Shown here: piece by piece, positions 44,581 through 49,051 of the stretch
Layout of the letters: every line of letters begins with the position of its first letter
How positions within the stretch are numbered: the stretch's first letter is position 1
NCBI RefSeq assembly: GCF_900099835.1
Contig: NZ_FNKP01000001.1
Location: 806,001 to 870,000, forward strand
Reading direction: 5' to 3'
From: Paraburkholderia fungorum
GTDB taxonomy: Bacteria; Pseudomonadota; Gammaproteobacteria; Burkholderiales; Burkholderiaceae
Length of the DNA stretch: 64,000 nucleotides
The notes under the pieces: model-generated
Seen by the model: the letters and a program-made list of their open reading frames with translations, nothing else
What the model was told of the DNA's origin: nothing
Databases searched by the model: none
Translations under genes and position numbers: made by a program

Positions 44581-45144
44581 ATGGGTAACCGTTTGAGCAA
44601 GATCGCCACCCGTACCGGTGATGACGGCACCACCGGTCTCGGCGACGGCCGCCGCGTACGCAAGGACAGTGCGCGCATTGCCGCGATTGGCGATGTGGAT
44701 GAACTCAATTCGAACCTCGGCGTGCTGCTGTGTGAAAACCTGCCGGACAACGTGCGCGCGGCGCTGGTCGCGATCCAGCATGACCTGTTCGATCTTGGCG
44801 GCGAGCTTTGCATTCCCGGCCACACGATGATTACCGGCGAGCACCTTGCCCGACTGGACAGTTGGCTTGCCGATTACAACGCTGCACTGCCGCCACTGAA
44901 GGAGTTCATTTTGCCGGGCGGGTCGCGCGCTGCCGCGCTTGCTCACGTTTGCCGCACGGTTTGCCGTCGCGCCGAACGGGCGATTGTCGCGCTCGGTGAA
45001 AACGAGACTGGGGACGAGACGATCAACGCAGCGCCGCGCCAATATGTAAATCGGCTGTCGGACCTGCTGTTCGTGCTCGCGCGCGTGCTCAATCGTGTGG
45101 ACGGCGGCACCGATGTACTTTGGCAGCACGACCGCACAGCGTAG
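44581..45144 (+). CDS. PduO-type cob(I)alamin adenosyltransferase
   Basis: Transfers adenosyl from ATP to cob(I)alamin. The 187-residue trimeric PduO-type enzyme shows the N-terminal ATP site IATRTGDDGTTGLGDGRRVR, AIGDVDELNSNLGVLLCENL, and the C-terminal RTVCRRAERAIVALGE. Of two adjacent ATG codons (44578 and 44581), the second has better spacing from GGGAGA. The gene diverges from the D-lactate-dehydrogenase-like gene. A TATAAT at 44422-44427 is a possible -10. It ends 9 bp from the convergent antitoxin gene. Confidence 0.93.
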   Translation: MGNRLSKIATRTGDDGTTGLGDGRRVRKDSARIAAIGDVDELNSNLGVLLCENLPDNVRAALVAIQHDLFDLGGELCIPGHTMITGEHLARLDSWLADYNAALPPLKEFILPGGSRAAALAHVCRTVCRRAERAIVALGENETGDETINAAPRQYVNRLSDLLFVLARVLNRVDGGTDVLWQHDRTA

Positions 45145-45153
45145 GTCCGGCTG

Positions 45154-45486
45154 TTACCCAATCGCCAGAGTGACCGGCTTGCCGATCCGGCTCATCATTT
45201 CCACCAGTGTGTCGATGGTGAACTTCGTGGTTTTCTTGTTGACCACGTCGGACACGCGTGGGCGCGACACCATCAGAATCTCGGCCGCCTCGGCCTGCTT
45301 CAGATGATGCTGTTCGATCCAGCTCGACAGCTCGGTCATGAGTTGCTCCTTGAGCAGTCGCGTGTCGTTGATCTGTTTCTGCGACGCGGCATACAGACGC
45401 TTCGCCTCGTCGGGTGAAAAGCCCAGTTCGGTGAACAGATTCGCACCAGGCTTTGTCACGTGACGAATTTTTGTGTCGGTCGTCAT
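45154..45486 (-). CDS. HigA-like antitoxin, XRE-type helix-turn-helix
   Basis: A 110-residue protein with a C-terminal helix-turn-helix (LKQAEAAEILMVSRPRVSDV, about residues 61-80) of the XRE/HTH_37 type and a helical N-terminal region that probably contacts the toxin. It overlaps the upstream toxin gene by four bases (ATGA). Toxin-first order is the HigBA arrangement. It should repress its own promoter. Low-level non-TA regulatory roles cannot be excluded. Confidence 0.85.
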   Translation of the reverse strand: MTTDTKIRHVTKPGANLFTELGFSPDEAKRLYAASQKQINDTRLLKEQLMTELSSWIEQHHLKQAEAAEILMVSRPRVSDVVNKKTTKFTIDTLVEMMSRIGKPVTLAIG

Positions 45487-45827
45487 TGTTCAGTTTTCCT
45501 ATCAGTGATGATCGCGCGGTACCGCATCTCGGCAATCTTTTTATCGAGCGGACCCAGCTTTTGCGTTTTCTTCTGGAAGCAGTGCAGGACGTAGAGCGCT
45601 TCGACGAACTTCGTCACATACATCACGCGAAAAATGCCTTCGGATTCCCGAATGCGAATTTCGCGCGTTCCTGCGCCAATAGAATCGAACGGCTTCCAGT
45701 CGTCAGGGTCGAGACCTGCCTGAATCTTGCGAAGCTGAAACCCTGCGCGACGCCGTGGTTCTTCGGGAAATGCAAGTAAATCGCGAAAGCTGGAGCCTAG
45801 CCAGCGTATTTCTTTTTCATGCTCCAT
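45483..45827 (-). CDS. HigB/Gp49-like toxin of a type II toxin-antitoxin system
   Basis: A 114-residue RelE-superfamily (phage Gp49-like) protein. FPEEPRRRAGFQLRKIQAGL, the SIGAGTREIRIRESEGIFRV strand pair and KFVEALYVLHCFQKKTQKLG are typical of this family, whose members usually cleave mRNA at the ribosome. It is the first gene of the pair and overlaps the antitoxin start. The surrounding sequence is more AT-rich than its neighbours, suggesting acquisition. Toxicity is inferred from family membership. Confidence 0.85.
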   Translation of the reverse strand: MEHEKEIRWLGSSFRDLLAFPEEPRRRAGFQLRKIQAGLDPDDWKPFDSIGAGTREIRIRESEGIFRVMYVTKFVEALYVLHCFQKKTQKLGPLDKKIAEMRYRAIITDRKTEQ

Positions 45828-45849
45828 AGCCGCCTTTCGTGTACAAAAT

Positions 45850-45876
45850 ATTATACGTAACGTACCGCCCGGTCAA
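45850..45876 (-). promoter_or_regulatory. Candidate promoter and operator of the toxin-antitoxin pair
   Basis: On the minus strand a perfect -10 TATAAT (45855-45850) lies 15 bp after TTGACC (45876-45871). An imperfect palindrome TACGTAACGTA (45854-45864) overlaps the -10, where an autorepressor would bind. Confidence 0.5.
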
Positions 45877-45977
45877 GTAGCATCCGACTTGGAAGTGACC
45901 CGGCGGATGAGTTGTTACGGTACAGAGGCCGCTCGCGAAGCACCATTCGTCCGTTCGGCTAATGCAAGCACAGAAAA

Positions 45978-46009
45978 CAAAAAGCCCGGCCCGAATGAGC
46001 CGGGCTTTC
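45978..46009. terminator. Terminator after aroG
   Basis: AAAGCCCGGC (45981-45990) pairs with GCCGGGCTTT (45999-46008). On the minus strand it is followed by TTGTTTT, so it best serves aroG, which ends at 46053. Confidence 0.8.
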
Positions 46010-46052
46010 TACGGTCTACGAAGCGGTTGCCGATGCAGCCGCTCAAGCGTTT

Positions 46053-47126
46053 TTAGTTGCCGCTGCCGCGCGCAACACGGCGTTGCTTGACCGATTCCGC
46101 GAGACCCTCCAGCACTGCAACGCTTTCATCCCAGCCGATGCACGCGTCCGTGACGCTCTGGCCGTACGTCAGCGCGCAGCCTTCCTGCAAGTCCTGACGC
46201 CCCGCCACCAGGTGCGATTCCACCATCACGCCGACAATCCGTTCGTCGCCCGAAGCAATTTGACGGCCGATATCCGCGCACACCGGAATCTGGTTCTCAT
46301 GCTTCTTCGAGCTATTCGCGTGACTCGCGTCGATCATCAGACGCGCCGCGAGACCGGCCTTGCCGATGTCCGCGCAGGCCGCGTTCACGCTGTCCGCGTC
46401 GTAGTTCGGCGTCTTGCCGCCGCGCAGAATGATGTGGCAGTCCTCGTTGCCCGCCGTCGACACGATCGCCGAGTGGCCACCCTTCGTCACCGACAGGAAA
46501 TGGTGCGGCTGCGATGCGGCCTTGATGGCGTCGACGGCGATCTTCACGTTGCCGTCCGTACCGTTCTTGAAGCCGACCGGGCACGACAGGCCCGACGCGA
46601 GTTCGCGGTGCACCTGCGACTCGGTGGTCCGTGCGCCGATCGCGCCCCACGAAATCAGATCGGCGATGTATTGCGGGCTGATCATGTCGAGGTATTCGGT
46701 GCCCGCCGGCAGGCCGAGTTCGTTGATGCGCAACAGCAGTTCGCGCGCGGCGCGCAGGCCGTCGTTGATCTTGAAGCTGCCGTCCATGTGCGGATCGTTG
46801 ATGAGACCCTTCCAGCCCACAGTAGTACGCGGCTTTTCGAAGTACACGCGCATCACGATTTCGAGTTCGCCGGCGAAGCGCTTGCGTTGCTCGATCAGGC
46901 GGCCCGCGTATTCCATCGCCGCTTTCGGATCGTGAATCGAGCACGGCCCGATGATGACGATCAGGCGGTCTTCCATGCCGTGCAGGATCCGGTGCATCGC
47001 ATTGCGCGAGTTGTAGATCACGTTGGACACCGTTTCATCGCAGGCGAATTCGCGGATCAGATGAGCGGGGGGCGTGAGTTCTTTCAATTCGCGAATACGG
47101 ACATCGTCGGTGTTGTGCGGGGGCAT
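46053..47126 (-). CDS. aroG: 3-deoxy-7-phosphoheptulonate (DAHP) synthase, class I AroG type
   Basis: First committed enzyme of the shikimate pathway: condenses phosphoenolpyruvate with erythrose 4-phosphate. The 357-residue protein resembles E. coli AroG (350). LIVIIGPCSIHDPKAAMEYA, IVMRVYFEKPRTTVGWKGLI, GSFKINDGLRAARELL, GARTTESQVHRELASGLSCP and the metal-site segment MIDASHANSSKKHENQ are diagnostic. CAGGAG precedes ATG 47126. The 298 nt upstream carry a promoter, a Phe/Tyr-rich leader peptide and a terminator, so expression is probably controlled by attenuation (see 47234-47424). Confidence 0.97.
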   Translation of the reverse strand: MPPHNTDDVRIRELKELTPPAHLIREFACDETVSNVIYNSRNAMHRILHGMEDRLIVIIGPCSIHDPKAAMEYAGRLIEQRKRFAGELEIVMRVYFEKPRTTVGWKGLINDPHMDGSFKINDGLRAARELLLRINELGLPAGTEYLDMISPQYIADLISWGAIGARTTESQVHRELASGLSCPVGFKNGTDGNVKIAVDAIKAASQPHHFLSVTKGGHSAIVSTAGNEDCHIILRGGKTPNYDADSVNAACADIGKAGLAARLMIDASHANSSKKHENQIPVCADIGRQIASGDERIVGVMVESHLVAGRQDLQEGCALTYGQSVTDACIGWDESVAVLEGLAESVKQRRVARGSGN

Positions 47127-47233
47127 GTTGTTCTCCTGAATCAGTTCTTAGCGTGTTCGCCTGCGTAGCGGCAGACGGCAATCAAAAAGTGTTCAACGAC
47201 TAAATTTCAGATACGGTTCAAATGAATGGGGCG

Positions 47234-47262
47234 AAAAAAAACCGCCAGACTTAGCTGGCGGT
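47234..47262 (-). terminator. Attenuator terminator in the aroG leader (segments 3:4)
   Basis: On the transcript ACCGCCAG (47262-47255) pairs with CTGGCGGT (47248-47241) around a 6-nt loop, followed by a T8 tract (47241-47234). It lies 107 nt upstream of the aroG start codon and downstream of the leader peptide stop. Segment 3 can instead pair with segment 2 (47315-47308), which would prevent the terminator forming. Confidence 0.88.
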
Positions 47263-47356
47263 TTTTCGGGAATTCTTGGTGTTTCGTGCACTAACACCCC
47301 TCTCGATCCGCCAGCGGTCTGAGATAGCCAAAAAAGTAAAAATAAAACTTGGCGGA
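47254..47356 (-). promoter_or_regulatory. aroG attenuator: mutually exclusive RNA segments 1, 2 and 3
   Basis: Segment 1 TCCGCCA (47356-47350) is complementary to TGGCGGA in segment 2 (47313-47307). Segment 2 as GCTGGCGG (47315-47308) is also complementary to CCGCCAGC in segment 3 (47261-47254). Segment 3 alternatively forms the terminator with segment 4. This is the textbook 1:2/3:4 versus 2:3 arrangement of ribosome-mediated attenuation. Confidence 0.82.
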
Positions 47357-47359
47357 CAT
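47291..47359 (-). CDS. Phe/Tyr-rich leader peptide of the aroG attenuator
   Basis: A 22-residue frame beginning MSAKFYFYFFGYL and ending with TAG at 47293-47291. Codons 5-12 read Phe-Tyr-Phe-Tyr-Phe-Phe-Gly-Tyr, so four Phe and three Tyr codons are clustered. Codons 2-4 contain RNA segment 1 (TCCGCCA) and codons 15-18 segment 2 (TGGCGGA), so ribosome stalling on aromatic codons would mask segment 1 and free segment 2. The Shine-Dalgarno sequence is weak. The frame is too short for ordinary gene finding; its composition and position directly ahead of aroG carry the assignment. Confidence 0.82.
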   Translation of the reverse strand: MSAKFYFYFFGYLRPLADREGC

Positions 47360-47395
47360 GGCGAAATAGGTCGCTGGTCAAAAAGGGTGAGTGAC

Positions 47396-47424
47396 TTTAT
47401 ACCCCGCTGAGGCTCGGGTGACAA
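47396..47424 (-). promoter_or_regulatory. Promoter of the aroG leader transcript
   Basis: TTGTCA (47424-47419), a 17-bp spacer and TATAAA (47401-47396) on the minus strand match a sigma-70 promoter. Predicted initiation near 47389 is about 30 nt before the leader peptide ATG. Confidence 0.7.
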
Positions 47425-47440
47425 GCTGCAGTGGGTAAAA

Positions 47441-47486
47441 ATGCGGAAAATCCGCATACTTCGCGCTTTCTGTGCGCGAAGTATGC
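47441..47486 (-). terminator. Overlapping hairpins downstream of tldD
   Basis: A perfect 13-bp stem (GCATACTTCGCGC 47454-47466 with its complement 47474-47486) begins 14 nt after the tldD stop. Its far arm overlaps a second hairpin ATGCGGA/TCCGCAT (47441-47457), so the two cannot form together. Probably the tldD transcript end. Confidence 0.6.
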
Positions 47487-47499
47487 ATTTGCTGCAAAA

Positions 47500-48966
47500 T
47501 CAGGCAGTGCCGCCAACCGTCATCCGGTCGATACGCAGCGTGGGTTGGCCGACGCCCACCGGCACGCTTTGGCCTTCCTTGCCGCACACGCCAACGCCCG
47601 AATCGAGCTTCATGTCGTTGCCGATCATGCTGACGTATTTCAGCGATTCCGGGCCGCTGCCGATTAGCGTCGCGCCCTTCACCGGATACGTGATCTTGCC
47701 GTTTTCGATCATGTACGCCTCGGACGCCGAGAACACGAACTTGCCGTTCGTGATGTCGACCTGGCCGCCGCCGAAATTCACCGCGTACAAGCCGTTCTTC
47801 ACCGACTCGATGATTTCCTGCGGGTCCTTGTCGCCGTTGAGCATGTACGTATTGGTCATGCGCGGCATCGGCAATGCAGCGTACGACTCGCGGCGCGCGT
47901 TGCCCGTGACCGGCATCTTCATCAGACGCGCGTTCAGCGTGTCCTGGATGTAGCCCTTCAGGATGCCGTCTTCGATCAGCGTCGTGCACTGGGTCGGGTT
48001 GCCTTCGTCGTCGATATTGAGCGAGCCGCGGCGATTCGGCAGCGTGCCGTCGTCGACCACCGTCACGCCCTTGGCTGCAACCTGTTCGCCGATCCGTCCC
48101 GCGAACGCCGACGAGCCCTTGCGATTGAAGTCGCCTTCCAGACCGTGGCCGATCGCTTCGTGCAGCAGCACGCCGGGCCAGCCCGGTCCGAGTACGACGG
48201 TCATCGCGCCGGCCGGAGCCGGACGCGCGTCGAGGTTCACCAGCGCCGCATGCACTGCGTCGTCGACGTAACGCGACAGCACTTCGTCGGTGAAATAGCC
48301 GTAGTCGAAGCGGCCGCCGCCGCCGCCGCTGCCGATCTCGCGGCGGCCGTTCTGTTCGGCGATCACGGTGACCGACACGCGCACCAGCGGTCGGATGTCG
48401 GCCGCGAAGCCGCCGTCGCTGCGCGCGACCAGCACCACGTCGTATTCACCGGCGAGGCCCGCCATCACTTGCTGGATGCGCGGATCGCGGCCGCGCGCCA
48501 TCTTTTCGATGCGTTCGAGCAGCTTGACCTTGGCGGTCGCGTCGAGCGAGTGGAGCGGATCGGACGGCAGGTACAGATCGCGCCCGGCAATGCCGGTCAG
48601 CGACGAGGCCGCCTTGATCTTCTGCTTGCCGCCGCCCGCCTTGGCGATCGAGCGCGTGGCGAGGGCCGCCTGACGGATCGCTTCGGGCGACAGGTCGTCC
48701 GAATACGCGAAGGCCGTGCGGTCGCCCGACACGGCACGCACGCCGACGCCCTGGTCGATGCTGAAGCTGCCCGATTTCACGATGCCTTCTTCGAGACTCC
48801 ACGCTTCGCTGCGCGTGTACTGGAAGTACAGGTCGGCGTAGTCGATCTTGTGCGTGAAGATTTCGGCGAGCGTGCGGGTGAGCAGGGATTCGTCGAGACC
48901 GTAGGGCGTCAGGAGGATGTCCTTGGCGGTGGCGAGATTACGGATACCGGGTTCGATGATGTTCAT
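47500..48966 (-). CDS. tldD: Metalloprotease TldD
   Basis: A 488-residue subunit of the TldD/TldE (PmbA) protease, which degrades unfolded peptides and matures some modified peptides. The zinc motif is [12 protein letters not shown] (about residues 265-276), with further conserved [15 protein letters not shown] and [13 protein letters not shown] segments. Start ATG 48966 gives the usual N-terminus. It follows the nitrilase-family gene by 85 bp. The partner tldE/pmbA is not in this window. Confidence 0.96.
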
Positions 48967-49051
48967 GCGAAGTATGTTCTGCTCGATACGGAGGATTCGG
49001 TTAGCGCCCGGTCGCTATATGCGTGACGGGCGCCGCAGTTTCAATGTCGTT

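What the first reader, a model, noticed from the sequence alone, without database searches (positions are those of the whole stretch)
47234..47424. Ribosome-mediated attenuator with a Phe/Tyr leader peptide in front of aroG
Seen in the sequence (minus strand): promoter TTGTCA-N17-TATAAA; a 22-codon ORF with Phe-Tyr-Phe-Tyr-Phe-Phe-Gly-Tyr at codons 5-12; segment 1 (TCCGCCA, codons 2-4) complementary to segment 2 (codons 15-18); segment 2 complementary over 8 bp to segment 3; segments 3 and 4 forming an 8-bp GC-rich stem followed by T8; then aroG 107 nt later. Known biology: stalling on scarce-amino-acid codons in such leaders frees segment 2 and prevents termination. The target, DAHP synthase, is the pathway's first enzyme. 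In E. coli aroG is controlled mainly by the TyrR repressor, so control by a mixed Phe/Tyr attenuator would be a different solution. I cannot tell whether it has been described before.
Basis: partly seen in the sequence, partly recalled or inferred. Interest (0 to 1): 0.9.

Follow-up and report, generated by a model that had tools for sequence, protein, structure and literature searches.

The report
Aromatic leader-peptide attenuator before aroG
A short stretch of RNA in front of the first gene for making aromatic amino acids encodes a tiny peptide full of those same amino acids, very probably so that the gene is switched on only when they run short; the same arrangement is found in many related bacteria and matched none of the family libraries searched.

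Summary
In front of aroG (DAHP synthase) in this Paraburkholderia-like genome lie a promoter-like site, a 22-codon ORF with Phe-Tyr-Phe-Tyr-Phe-Phe-Gly-Tyr, alternative RNA pairings and a terminator. Comparison makes ribosome-mediated transcription attenuation very likely. An aromatic leader precedes aroG in all 80 named relatives fetched. Codons 5-10 stay aromatic in 459 of 467 cells while third positions drift. The antiterminator segment keeps its RNA sequence although read in all three frames, and the terminator stem covaries. A covariance model also finds the element in 12 further families of the order, one other family of the class (plus one genome of a second) and two families outside the class. 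Of 79 matches fetched (of 108), 74 precede aroG. Many relatives add a Trp codon (88 of 137 leaders have Phe, Tyr and Trp); this window does not. The aroG tree suggests that copies outside the order arrived with their leader. Rfam, Pfam and NCBIfam gave no match, and ten paper searches found no description in these bacteria. DAHP-synthase attenuators are, however, known in Corynebacterium (aroR/aroF) and proposed elsewhere, so this is a new, widespread member of a known kind. Regulation itself is untested.

The parts
47396..47424 (-). sigma-70-like promoter TTGTCA-N17-TATAAA
   Evidence: read; a promoter-like pair upstream of the leader start in 61 of 136 leaders against 9 of 1360 mononucleotide shuffles; not listed by the stricter scan; transcription start not mapped
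47291..47359 (-). leader ORF MSAKFYFYFFGYLRPLADREGC with stop TAG (47291-47293)
   Evidence: codons 5-10 aromatic in 459 of 467 cells of 78 alignment rows; no clear Shine-Dalgarno sequence
47324..47347 (-). regulatory codons 5-12: Phe-Tyr-Phe-Tyr-Phe-Phe-Gly-Tyr (codon 11 is Trp in 57 of 78 alignment rows, Gly here)
47350..47356 (-). segment 1 (TCCGCCA), pairs with segment 2 (protector)
   Evidence: 89.0% of cells paired, no two-sided change: weakest element
47307..47317 (-). segment 2 (CCGCTGGCGGA), antiterminator half, inside the leader ORF
   Evidence: 98.4% of cells paired with segment 3 in A1; read in all three frames across lineages
47255..47265 (-). segment 3 (AAAACCGCCAG), shared by antiterminator and terminator
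47234..47248 (-). segment 4 (CTGGCGGTTTT) and T tract: terminator 3' arm
   Evidence: 99.3% of cells paired, 2 covarying pairs in 78 rows; 96.4%, 4 covarying pairs, 36 two-sided cells in 81 diverse rows
46053..47126 (-). aroG, 3-deoxy-7-phosphoheptulonate (DAHP) synthase, 357 aa, the regulated gene
   Evidence: NCBIfam NF006723 above its cut-off (593.7 vs 568 bits); Pfam PF00793

Best explanation
A canonical ribosome-mediated transcription attenuator controlling aroG. Transcription starts about 30 nt upstream of a leader ORF (inferred). If aromatic aminoacyl-tRNAs are plentiful, the ribosome runs through the Phe/Tyr codons to the stop codon. Segment 2 is then covered, kept apart from segment 3, or re-paired with segment 1; segments 3 and 4 form the terminator and transcription ends before aroG, leaving an RNA of roughly 155 nt. 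If charged tRNA-Phe or tRNA-Tyr (in many relatives also tRNA-Trp) is scarce, the ribosome stalls on codons 5-12, upstream of segment 2. Segments 2 and 3 pair, the terminator cannot form and aroG is transcribed. Shown here: the elements, their conservation and geometry. Inferred: the response to amino acids, the transcription start and the dynamics.
For: Leader in 80/80 named relatives. Over all 78 alignment rows codons 5-10 are aromatic in 459 of 467 cells; third positions carry 113 minority letters, first and second together 38, mostly Phe/Tyr/Trp exchanges. GGCGG of segment 2 found in 130 of 137 leaders, read in frame 2 (113), 0 (10) and 1 (7), including four named loci (L010, L011, L022, L048) with a frameshift after the run. 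Terminator covariation; weaker 2:3 covariation (10 two-sided cells against 5.2 in shuffles, reached in 6/500). 2:3 duplex at rank <=0.05 among shuffles in 23 of 54 non-redundant leaders. Geometry: GGCGG starts 8-24 nt after the first base of the last aromatic codon of the run (130 of 130) and the stop codon 10-32 nt after GGCGG (129 of 130); with a ribosome on the run and no pairing across it, segment 3 is sequestered with mean P 0.99 against 0.63 in shuffles. Of 79 fetched model matches 74 lie before aroG, which the model does not contain. Run F 0.45, Y 0.24, W 0.064 against 0.021, 0.011, 0.007 elsewhere in the leaders. Target is the pathway's first enzyme.
Against: No transcription or translation data. 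Plain equilibrium folding does not show a switch: in ten leaders tried, 3:4 has P >= 0.996 in the full transcript in every ribosome state, and with a masked footprint but pairing across it allowed, segment 2 stays mostly paired upstream (mean over 130 leaders 0.90 free, 0.79 stalled). Only the steric version gives the expected outcome, it assumes part of the answer, and shuffled RNA still sequesters segment 3 with mean 0.63. 1:2 has no covariation, nor has 2:3 in A1; 31 of 54 leaders do not beat shuffles at 0.05 in the duplex test. SD-like motif before the start codon in only 9 of 136 leaders. Distant matches were chosen with a model containing the terminator and segment 2, and leader ORFs were picked by aromatic content, so these features are partly built in for them. 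The 66 rows were pre-selected by their peptide; the unselected count is used instead.
Confidence: 0.93

Rival explanations
1. The hairpin is only a terminator (of tldD or of a short RNA) and the aromatic ORF is accidental, U-rich sequence.
For: U-rich DNA encodes Phe easily. Terminators also occur before some leaderless aroG genes (10 of 60 regions have a terminator-like hairpin with a non-aromatic ORF).
Against: tldD seems to have its own hairpin plus short T run upstream of the promoter (about 47457-47437, read by eye, not listed by the scan). Codons 5-10 stay aromatic in 459 of 467 cells while third positions drift. Leaders with quite different sequences (YFFWYWF, FFFFFYFSYS, FYFWYY) keep aromatic residues before aroG.
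Confidence: 0.03
2. The peptide or the terminated leader RNA acts in trans (as reported for peTrpL/rnTrpL in Sinorhizobium meliloti), and attenuation of aroG is secondary.
For: Precedent (PMC7298713, abstract start in the listing; passages on the same system in PMC10117765). The peptide is strongly conserved within Burkholderiaceae.
Against: The peptide's C-terminal half is frameshifted in L010, L011, L022 and L048 while the RNA stays, and peptides of other families share little beyond aromatic content. A role besides attenuation is not excluded.
Confidence: 0.03
3. A riboswitch or protein-binding leader controls the terminator and the ORF is incidental.
For: A terminator/antiterminator layout is shared by such elements.
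Against: No Rfam family matched. What is conserved is the codon run plus the pairing segments, and the codon pattern points to translation.
Confidence: 0.01

Closest known systems
aroR/aroF attenuator of Corynebacterium glutamicum (Neshat et al. 2014, not read; described in passages of PMC11802643 and PMC4046766)
   Same: Leader peptide with Phe-Tyr-Phe before a DAHP synthase; ribosome-mediated attenuation, reported to respond to Phe but not to Tyr.
   Different: Actinobacterium; a Phe-Tyr-Phe triplet is described, against 4-8 aromatics in 9 residues here, often with Trp; common descent not tested.
pheA (pheL) and trpE (trpL) attenuators of Escherichia coli (passages of PMC11802643 and PMC11878033)
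   Same: Same mechanism: leader ORF with codons of the end product and transcription attenuation.
   Different: They control terminal-branch genes and sense one amino acid each; here the common-pathway gene carries a mixed aromatic leader.
uORFC-13-1 motif before aroF in Acholeplasma (PMC8632094, passages)
   Same: Computationally proposed Phe-sensing uORF before a DAHP synthase gene.
   Different: Acholeplasma and environmental sequences, 24 representatives, at least one Phe codon; no in vivo test in the passages seen.
Shewanella aroF cis-regulatory RNA, listed as 'Attenuator sensing tyr-tRNA' (PMC2659441, passages, citing Camakaris 1980 on E. coli aroF-tyrA, not read)
   Same: Attenuation suggested for a DAHP synthase gene in Proteobacteria.
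   Different: Listed with a QRNA hit but no terminator or attenuator flag; Tyr-sensitive isozyme; no aromatic leader described in the passages seen.
ilvGMEDA- and thr-type multivalent attenuators (recalled, no call)
   Same: One leader with codons for several end products.
   Different: Branched-chain or Thr/Ile codons instead of Phe/Tyr/Trp.

Membership tests
Ribosome-mediated transcription attenuator (trp/phe/his type) | Short upstream ORF with a run of codons for the pathway's products | tested here: met
   7 aromatic codons in 8; 80/80 named relatives with 5-8 in 9; unique among 409 window ORFs
Ribosome-mediated transcription attenuator (trp/phe/his type) | The leader ORF is translated | tested here: inconclusive
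   Aromatic codons kept, third positions drifting, in 78 unselected rows implies translation; no ribosome profiling; SD-like motif in only 9 of 136
Ribosome-mediated transcription attenuator (trp/phe/his type) | Intrinsic terminator between leader ORF and structural gene | tested here: met
   (99.3% and 96.4% of cells paired, covariation); termination itself not measured
Ribosome-mediated transcription attenuator (trp/phe/his type) | Mutually exclusive antiterminator 2:3 | tested here: met
   Shares segment 3 with the terminator; 98.4% of cells paired in A1 without covariation; modest covariation in A3; duplex test 23 of 54; sequestration 0.99 vs 0.63
Ribosome-mediated transcription attenuator (trp/phe/his type) | Protector pairing 1:2 | tested here: inconclusive
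   89.0% paired, no two-sided change; folding simulations ambiguous
Ribosome-mediated transcription attenuator (trp/phe/his type) | Codons, segment 2 and stop codon spaced for ribosome masking | tested here: met
   8-24 nt in 130/130 and 10-32 nt in 129/130 (7 of 137 leaders without an exact GGCGG left out)
Ribosome-mediated transcription attenuator (trp/phe/his type) | Read-through rises when the cognate charged tRNA is scarce | not testable with these tools
   needs fusions or RNA-seq
Rfam leader families (Phe_leader, Trp_leader and the rest of Rfam 15; the two names recalled) | Covariance-model match above the gathering score | tested here: not met
   window 45000-49000: only two matches, both below their gathering scores and elsewhere; 20 related loci, 18 of them with aroG: 0 matches
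Pfam/NCBIfam leader-peptide families | Profile match of the peptide | tested here: not met
   0 families at E<=1 for the window peptide and four relatives
Corynebacterium aroR/aroF attenuator | Common descent or sequence similarity | not tested
   sequence not fetched; resemblance of design only,

The most novel reading that the evidence does not exclude
A largely undescribed family of aroG attenuators that, in many lineages, read all three aromatic amino acids in one leader (Phe, Tyr and Trp codons), so that a single DAHP synthase gene integrates the supply of all end products without TyrR/TrpR-type repressors. Gene and attenuator travel together as a self-contained cassette, having moved from Betaproteobacteria into a gammaproteobacterial family and into families outside that class.
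Probability: 0.55. Interest if true: 0.65.

Novelty: new member of a known kind. Interest (0 to 1): 0.5.

Why it matters
DAHP synthase is the gate of aromatic biosynthesis. A regulon survey found TyrR and TrpR conserved in many gammaproteobacterial groups but absent from other classes (PMC5343134, passages), so how betaproteobacteria control this gate at the gene level is a practical open question. The element gives a concrete, testable answer for Burkholderia, Cupriavidus, Ralstonia, Herbaspirillum and relatives. It matched nothing in Rfam 15, so annotation by Rfam would miss it, and short leader RNAs from this site could be mistaken for independent small RNAs. Mixed Phe/Tyr/Trp leaders would allow tests of how one attenuator weighs several amino acids.

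Tried and rejected
Accidental ORF plus ordinary terminator: rejected on the codon pattern and the recurring association with aroG. Known Rfam family: none matched; the Thr_leader match at 45975-46048 is sub-threshold (26.5 vs 55 bits) and lies behind aroG. Known peptide family: none. A second copy in the own genome: the next best model match has E 0.48, and by eye no such leader stands before the second DAHP synthase gene (L082). Five of 79 fetched model matches are not before aroG (L127, L144, L145, L146, L215; E 3.5e-4 to 2.1e-3): looked at once (L215 only), not pursued; 29 of 108 match places outside the own genome were not fetched as matches. Equilibrium folding did not reproduce a switch; told as evidence against. 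Universality was tested and rejected: of 60 aroG upstream regions (40 from the order, 20 from the class, chosen mostly from genomes without a model match; G097 had one), only L149 and L185 show a leader with 4 or more aromatics in 9 and a terminator; the same scan finds 137 of 137 known leaders, though those were defined by similar rules. L174 has a terminator but no leader. Codon-position counts used rows pre-selected by peptide; replaced. Ten paper searches found no description in Burkholderiales, but most subscription papers (e.g. Vitreschak 2004, Neshat 2014) are not held, supplements were not available, and three B. cenocepacia transcript papers were only searched for terms.

Full report
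What is there. On the minus strand between tldD (47500-48966) and aroG (46053-47126) one search shows TTGTCA-N17-TATAAA (47424-47396), an ATG at 47359 opening MSAKFYFYFFGYLRPLADREGC, a stop at 47293-47291, a GC-rich hairpin with eight T (47265-47234) and the aroG ATG 107 nt further on. A hairpin with a short T run just upstream of the promoter (about 47457-47437, read by eye; not listed by the scan) may be the tldD terminator, so the leader seems to start its own transcription unit. The protein is AroG by NCBIfam (NF006723, 593.7 bits against a cut-off of 568). The genome has a second DAHP synthase gene on another contig, before which I saw no such leader (by eye), and a third PF00793 match that I did not identify further.

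More than chance. Among 409 ATG-started ORFs of 10-45 codons in the window it is the only one with 5 or more aromatic residues in 9. Against dinucleotide shuffles the region folds with z -2.43.

Conservation in named relatives. A capped scan of named genomes gave 80 loci with aroG, 79-99% identical in protein: among them Paraburkholderia, Burkholderia, Caballeronia, Trinickia, Mycetohabitans, Pandoraea, Robbsia, Ralstonia, Cupriavidus and four genera of Oxalobacteraceae. All 80 have a leader ORF with 5-8 aromatic residues in 9 before aroG. In L048 (Candidatus Burkholderia humilis) a frameshift makes the ORF run through the terminator. Over all 78 distinct rows of alignment A1, without selection, codons 5-10 are aromatic in 459 of 467 cells (one gap). 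Third positions carry 113 minority letters, first and second positions together 38, mostly exchanges among Phe, Tyr and Trp: the mark of selection on amino acids. An earlier count gave the same picture but on 66 rows pre-selected by their peptide. The leaders of the named loci use TTT for 83% of Phe codons, the aroG genes of the same loci for 8%.

RNA constraint. Terminator pairing is kept in 99.3% of cells with two covarying pairs. In 81 diverse rows it is 96.4%, with four covarying pairs and 36 two-sided cells against 9.8 in shuffles (this alignment was fitted to that stem). The antiterminator 2:3 is kept in 98.4% of cells but without covariation in the close set, and in 87.4% with modest covariation in the diverse set. 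The protector 1:2 is kept in 89.0%, without covariation. Segment 2 lies inside the ORF; its GGCGG is read in frame 2, 0 and 1 in 113, 10 and 7 of 130 leaders (7 further leaders lack an exact GGCGG). It is unchanged in L010, L011, L022 and L048, where a frameshift follows the aromatic run. So the first half of the ORF is held as peptide and the second half as RNA.

Geometry and folding. GGCGG starts 8-24 nt after the first base of the last aromatic codon of the run (130 of 130) and the stop codon follows 10-32 nt later (129 of 130), as needed for a ribosome that leaves segment 2 free when stalled and covers or isolates it when at the stop codon. If pairing across the ribosome is forbidden, a ribosome in the middle of the run leaves segment 3 sequestered with mean probability 0.99 (137 of 137 above 0.5) against 0.63 with shuffled RNA. 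In a duplex test 23 of 54 non-redundant leaders reach rank 0.05 among shuffles. Without the steric assumption, equilibrium folding does not show a switch. I regard folding as supportive at most.

Spread. A covariance model from the 78 rows finds only this site in the own genome at a convincing score. It matches 81 of 399 genomes drawn across the order (E<=0.01), 8 of 369 across the class (E<=0.001, three of them of the own order), 14 of 60 in one other family of the class (f63) and 24 of 299 across the phylum (15 of these already seen). These calls name 108 distinct places outside the own genome; 79 were fetched and 74 lie directly before aroG (56 of 60, 18 of 19). The five others have E 3.5e-4 to 2.1e-3. 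The aroG-linked ones come from 12 other families of the order (f3, f4, f8, f10, f11, f12, f20, f23, f30, f39, f43, f49), from f63 and f68 in the class, and from f253 and f256 outside it. Their leaders differ widely in sequence but hold 4-8 aromatic residues in 9. In contrast, 58 of 60 aroG upstream regions, taken mostly from genomes without a match, show no such leader, with a scan that finds 137 of 137 known leaders. The element is common but lineage-specific.

Which amino acids. Of 137 leaders, 137 have Phe and 136 Tyr in the run, and 88 have all three aromatics within the first 20 residues; among 54 non-redundant leaders 29 have all three. Trp makes up 6.4% of run residues against 0.7% elsewhere in the leaders. 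In one search, by eye, 17 of 18 aroG-linked leaders carry Trp. This window, with Gly at codon 11 where 57 of 78 rows have Trp, is a Phe/Tyr-only version.

Descent. In an aroG tree of 133 rows (quick method, SH-aLRT only, 48 of 130 inner branches open) the leader-bearing proteins from outside the order form one group (22 rows, support 99) placed among mostly leader-bearing lineages of the order, while 20 leaderless proteins from elsewhere in the class form another group (98). This suggests transfer of gene plus leader. Caveats: the leader-bearing rows from outside the order were picked with the leader model, leaderless proteins from outside the class were not sampled, leaderless rows of the order are scattered among the others, and the root is arbitrary.

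What is known. DAHP-synthase attenuation is reported for C. glutamicum aroR/aroF (passages of PMC11802643 and PMC4046766), proposed for Acholeplasma aroF (passages of PMC8632094), listed for Shewanella aroF with reference to a 1980 E. coli study (passages of PMC2659441), and database-predicted for an aroA-I-alpha(Y)-tyrA operon of Vibrio (passages of PMC1173090). A regulon survey says TyrR and TrpR are conserved in many gammaproteobacterial groups but absent in other classes (passages of PMC5343134). Ten searches for the Burkholderiales element returned no description, within a library that lacks most subscription papers. Rfam, Pfam and NCBIfam gave no match.

Verdict. A real, canonical attenuator as far as sequence can show; new in its target lineage and in its mixed aromatic leader, but a member of a long-known kind. 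Regulation remains to be shown.

Noticed in passing
window 45154-45827, minus strand: Behind aroG lie two overlapping genes, a Gp49-like (PF05973) protein and an HTH_37 protein: a likely HigBA-type toxin-antitoxin pair (type name recalled).
   Followed up: partly
L010, L011, L022, L048 (upstream of aroG): Leader ORF frameshifted after the aromatic run while the RNA pairing segments are unchanged; in L048 the shifted ORF runs on through the terminator.
   Followed up: yes
leaders, and the window leader: An SD-like motif precedes the leader start in only 9 of 136 leaders, and in the 80 named loci Phe is mostly TTT in the leader, rare in the same loci's aroG (83% vs 8%).
   Followed up: partly
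L207-L214, L216-L225, L140-L143: Leader-bearing aroG from outside the order forms one group placed among lineages of the order in the tree, suggesting transfer of gene and attenuator together.
   Followed up: partly
L082 (own genome, second contig): Second DAHP synthase gene (NF009395) without an aromatic leader seen by eye; how it is controlled is open.
   Followed up: no
L127, L144, L145, L146, L215: Weak model matches not next to aroG (E 3.5e-4 to 2.1e-3); perhaps terminator look-alikes, nature not settled.
   Followed up: partly
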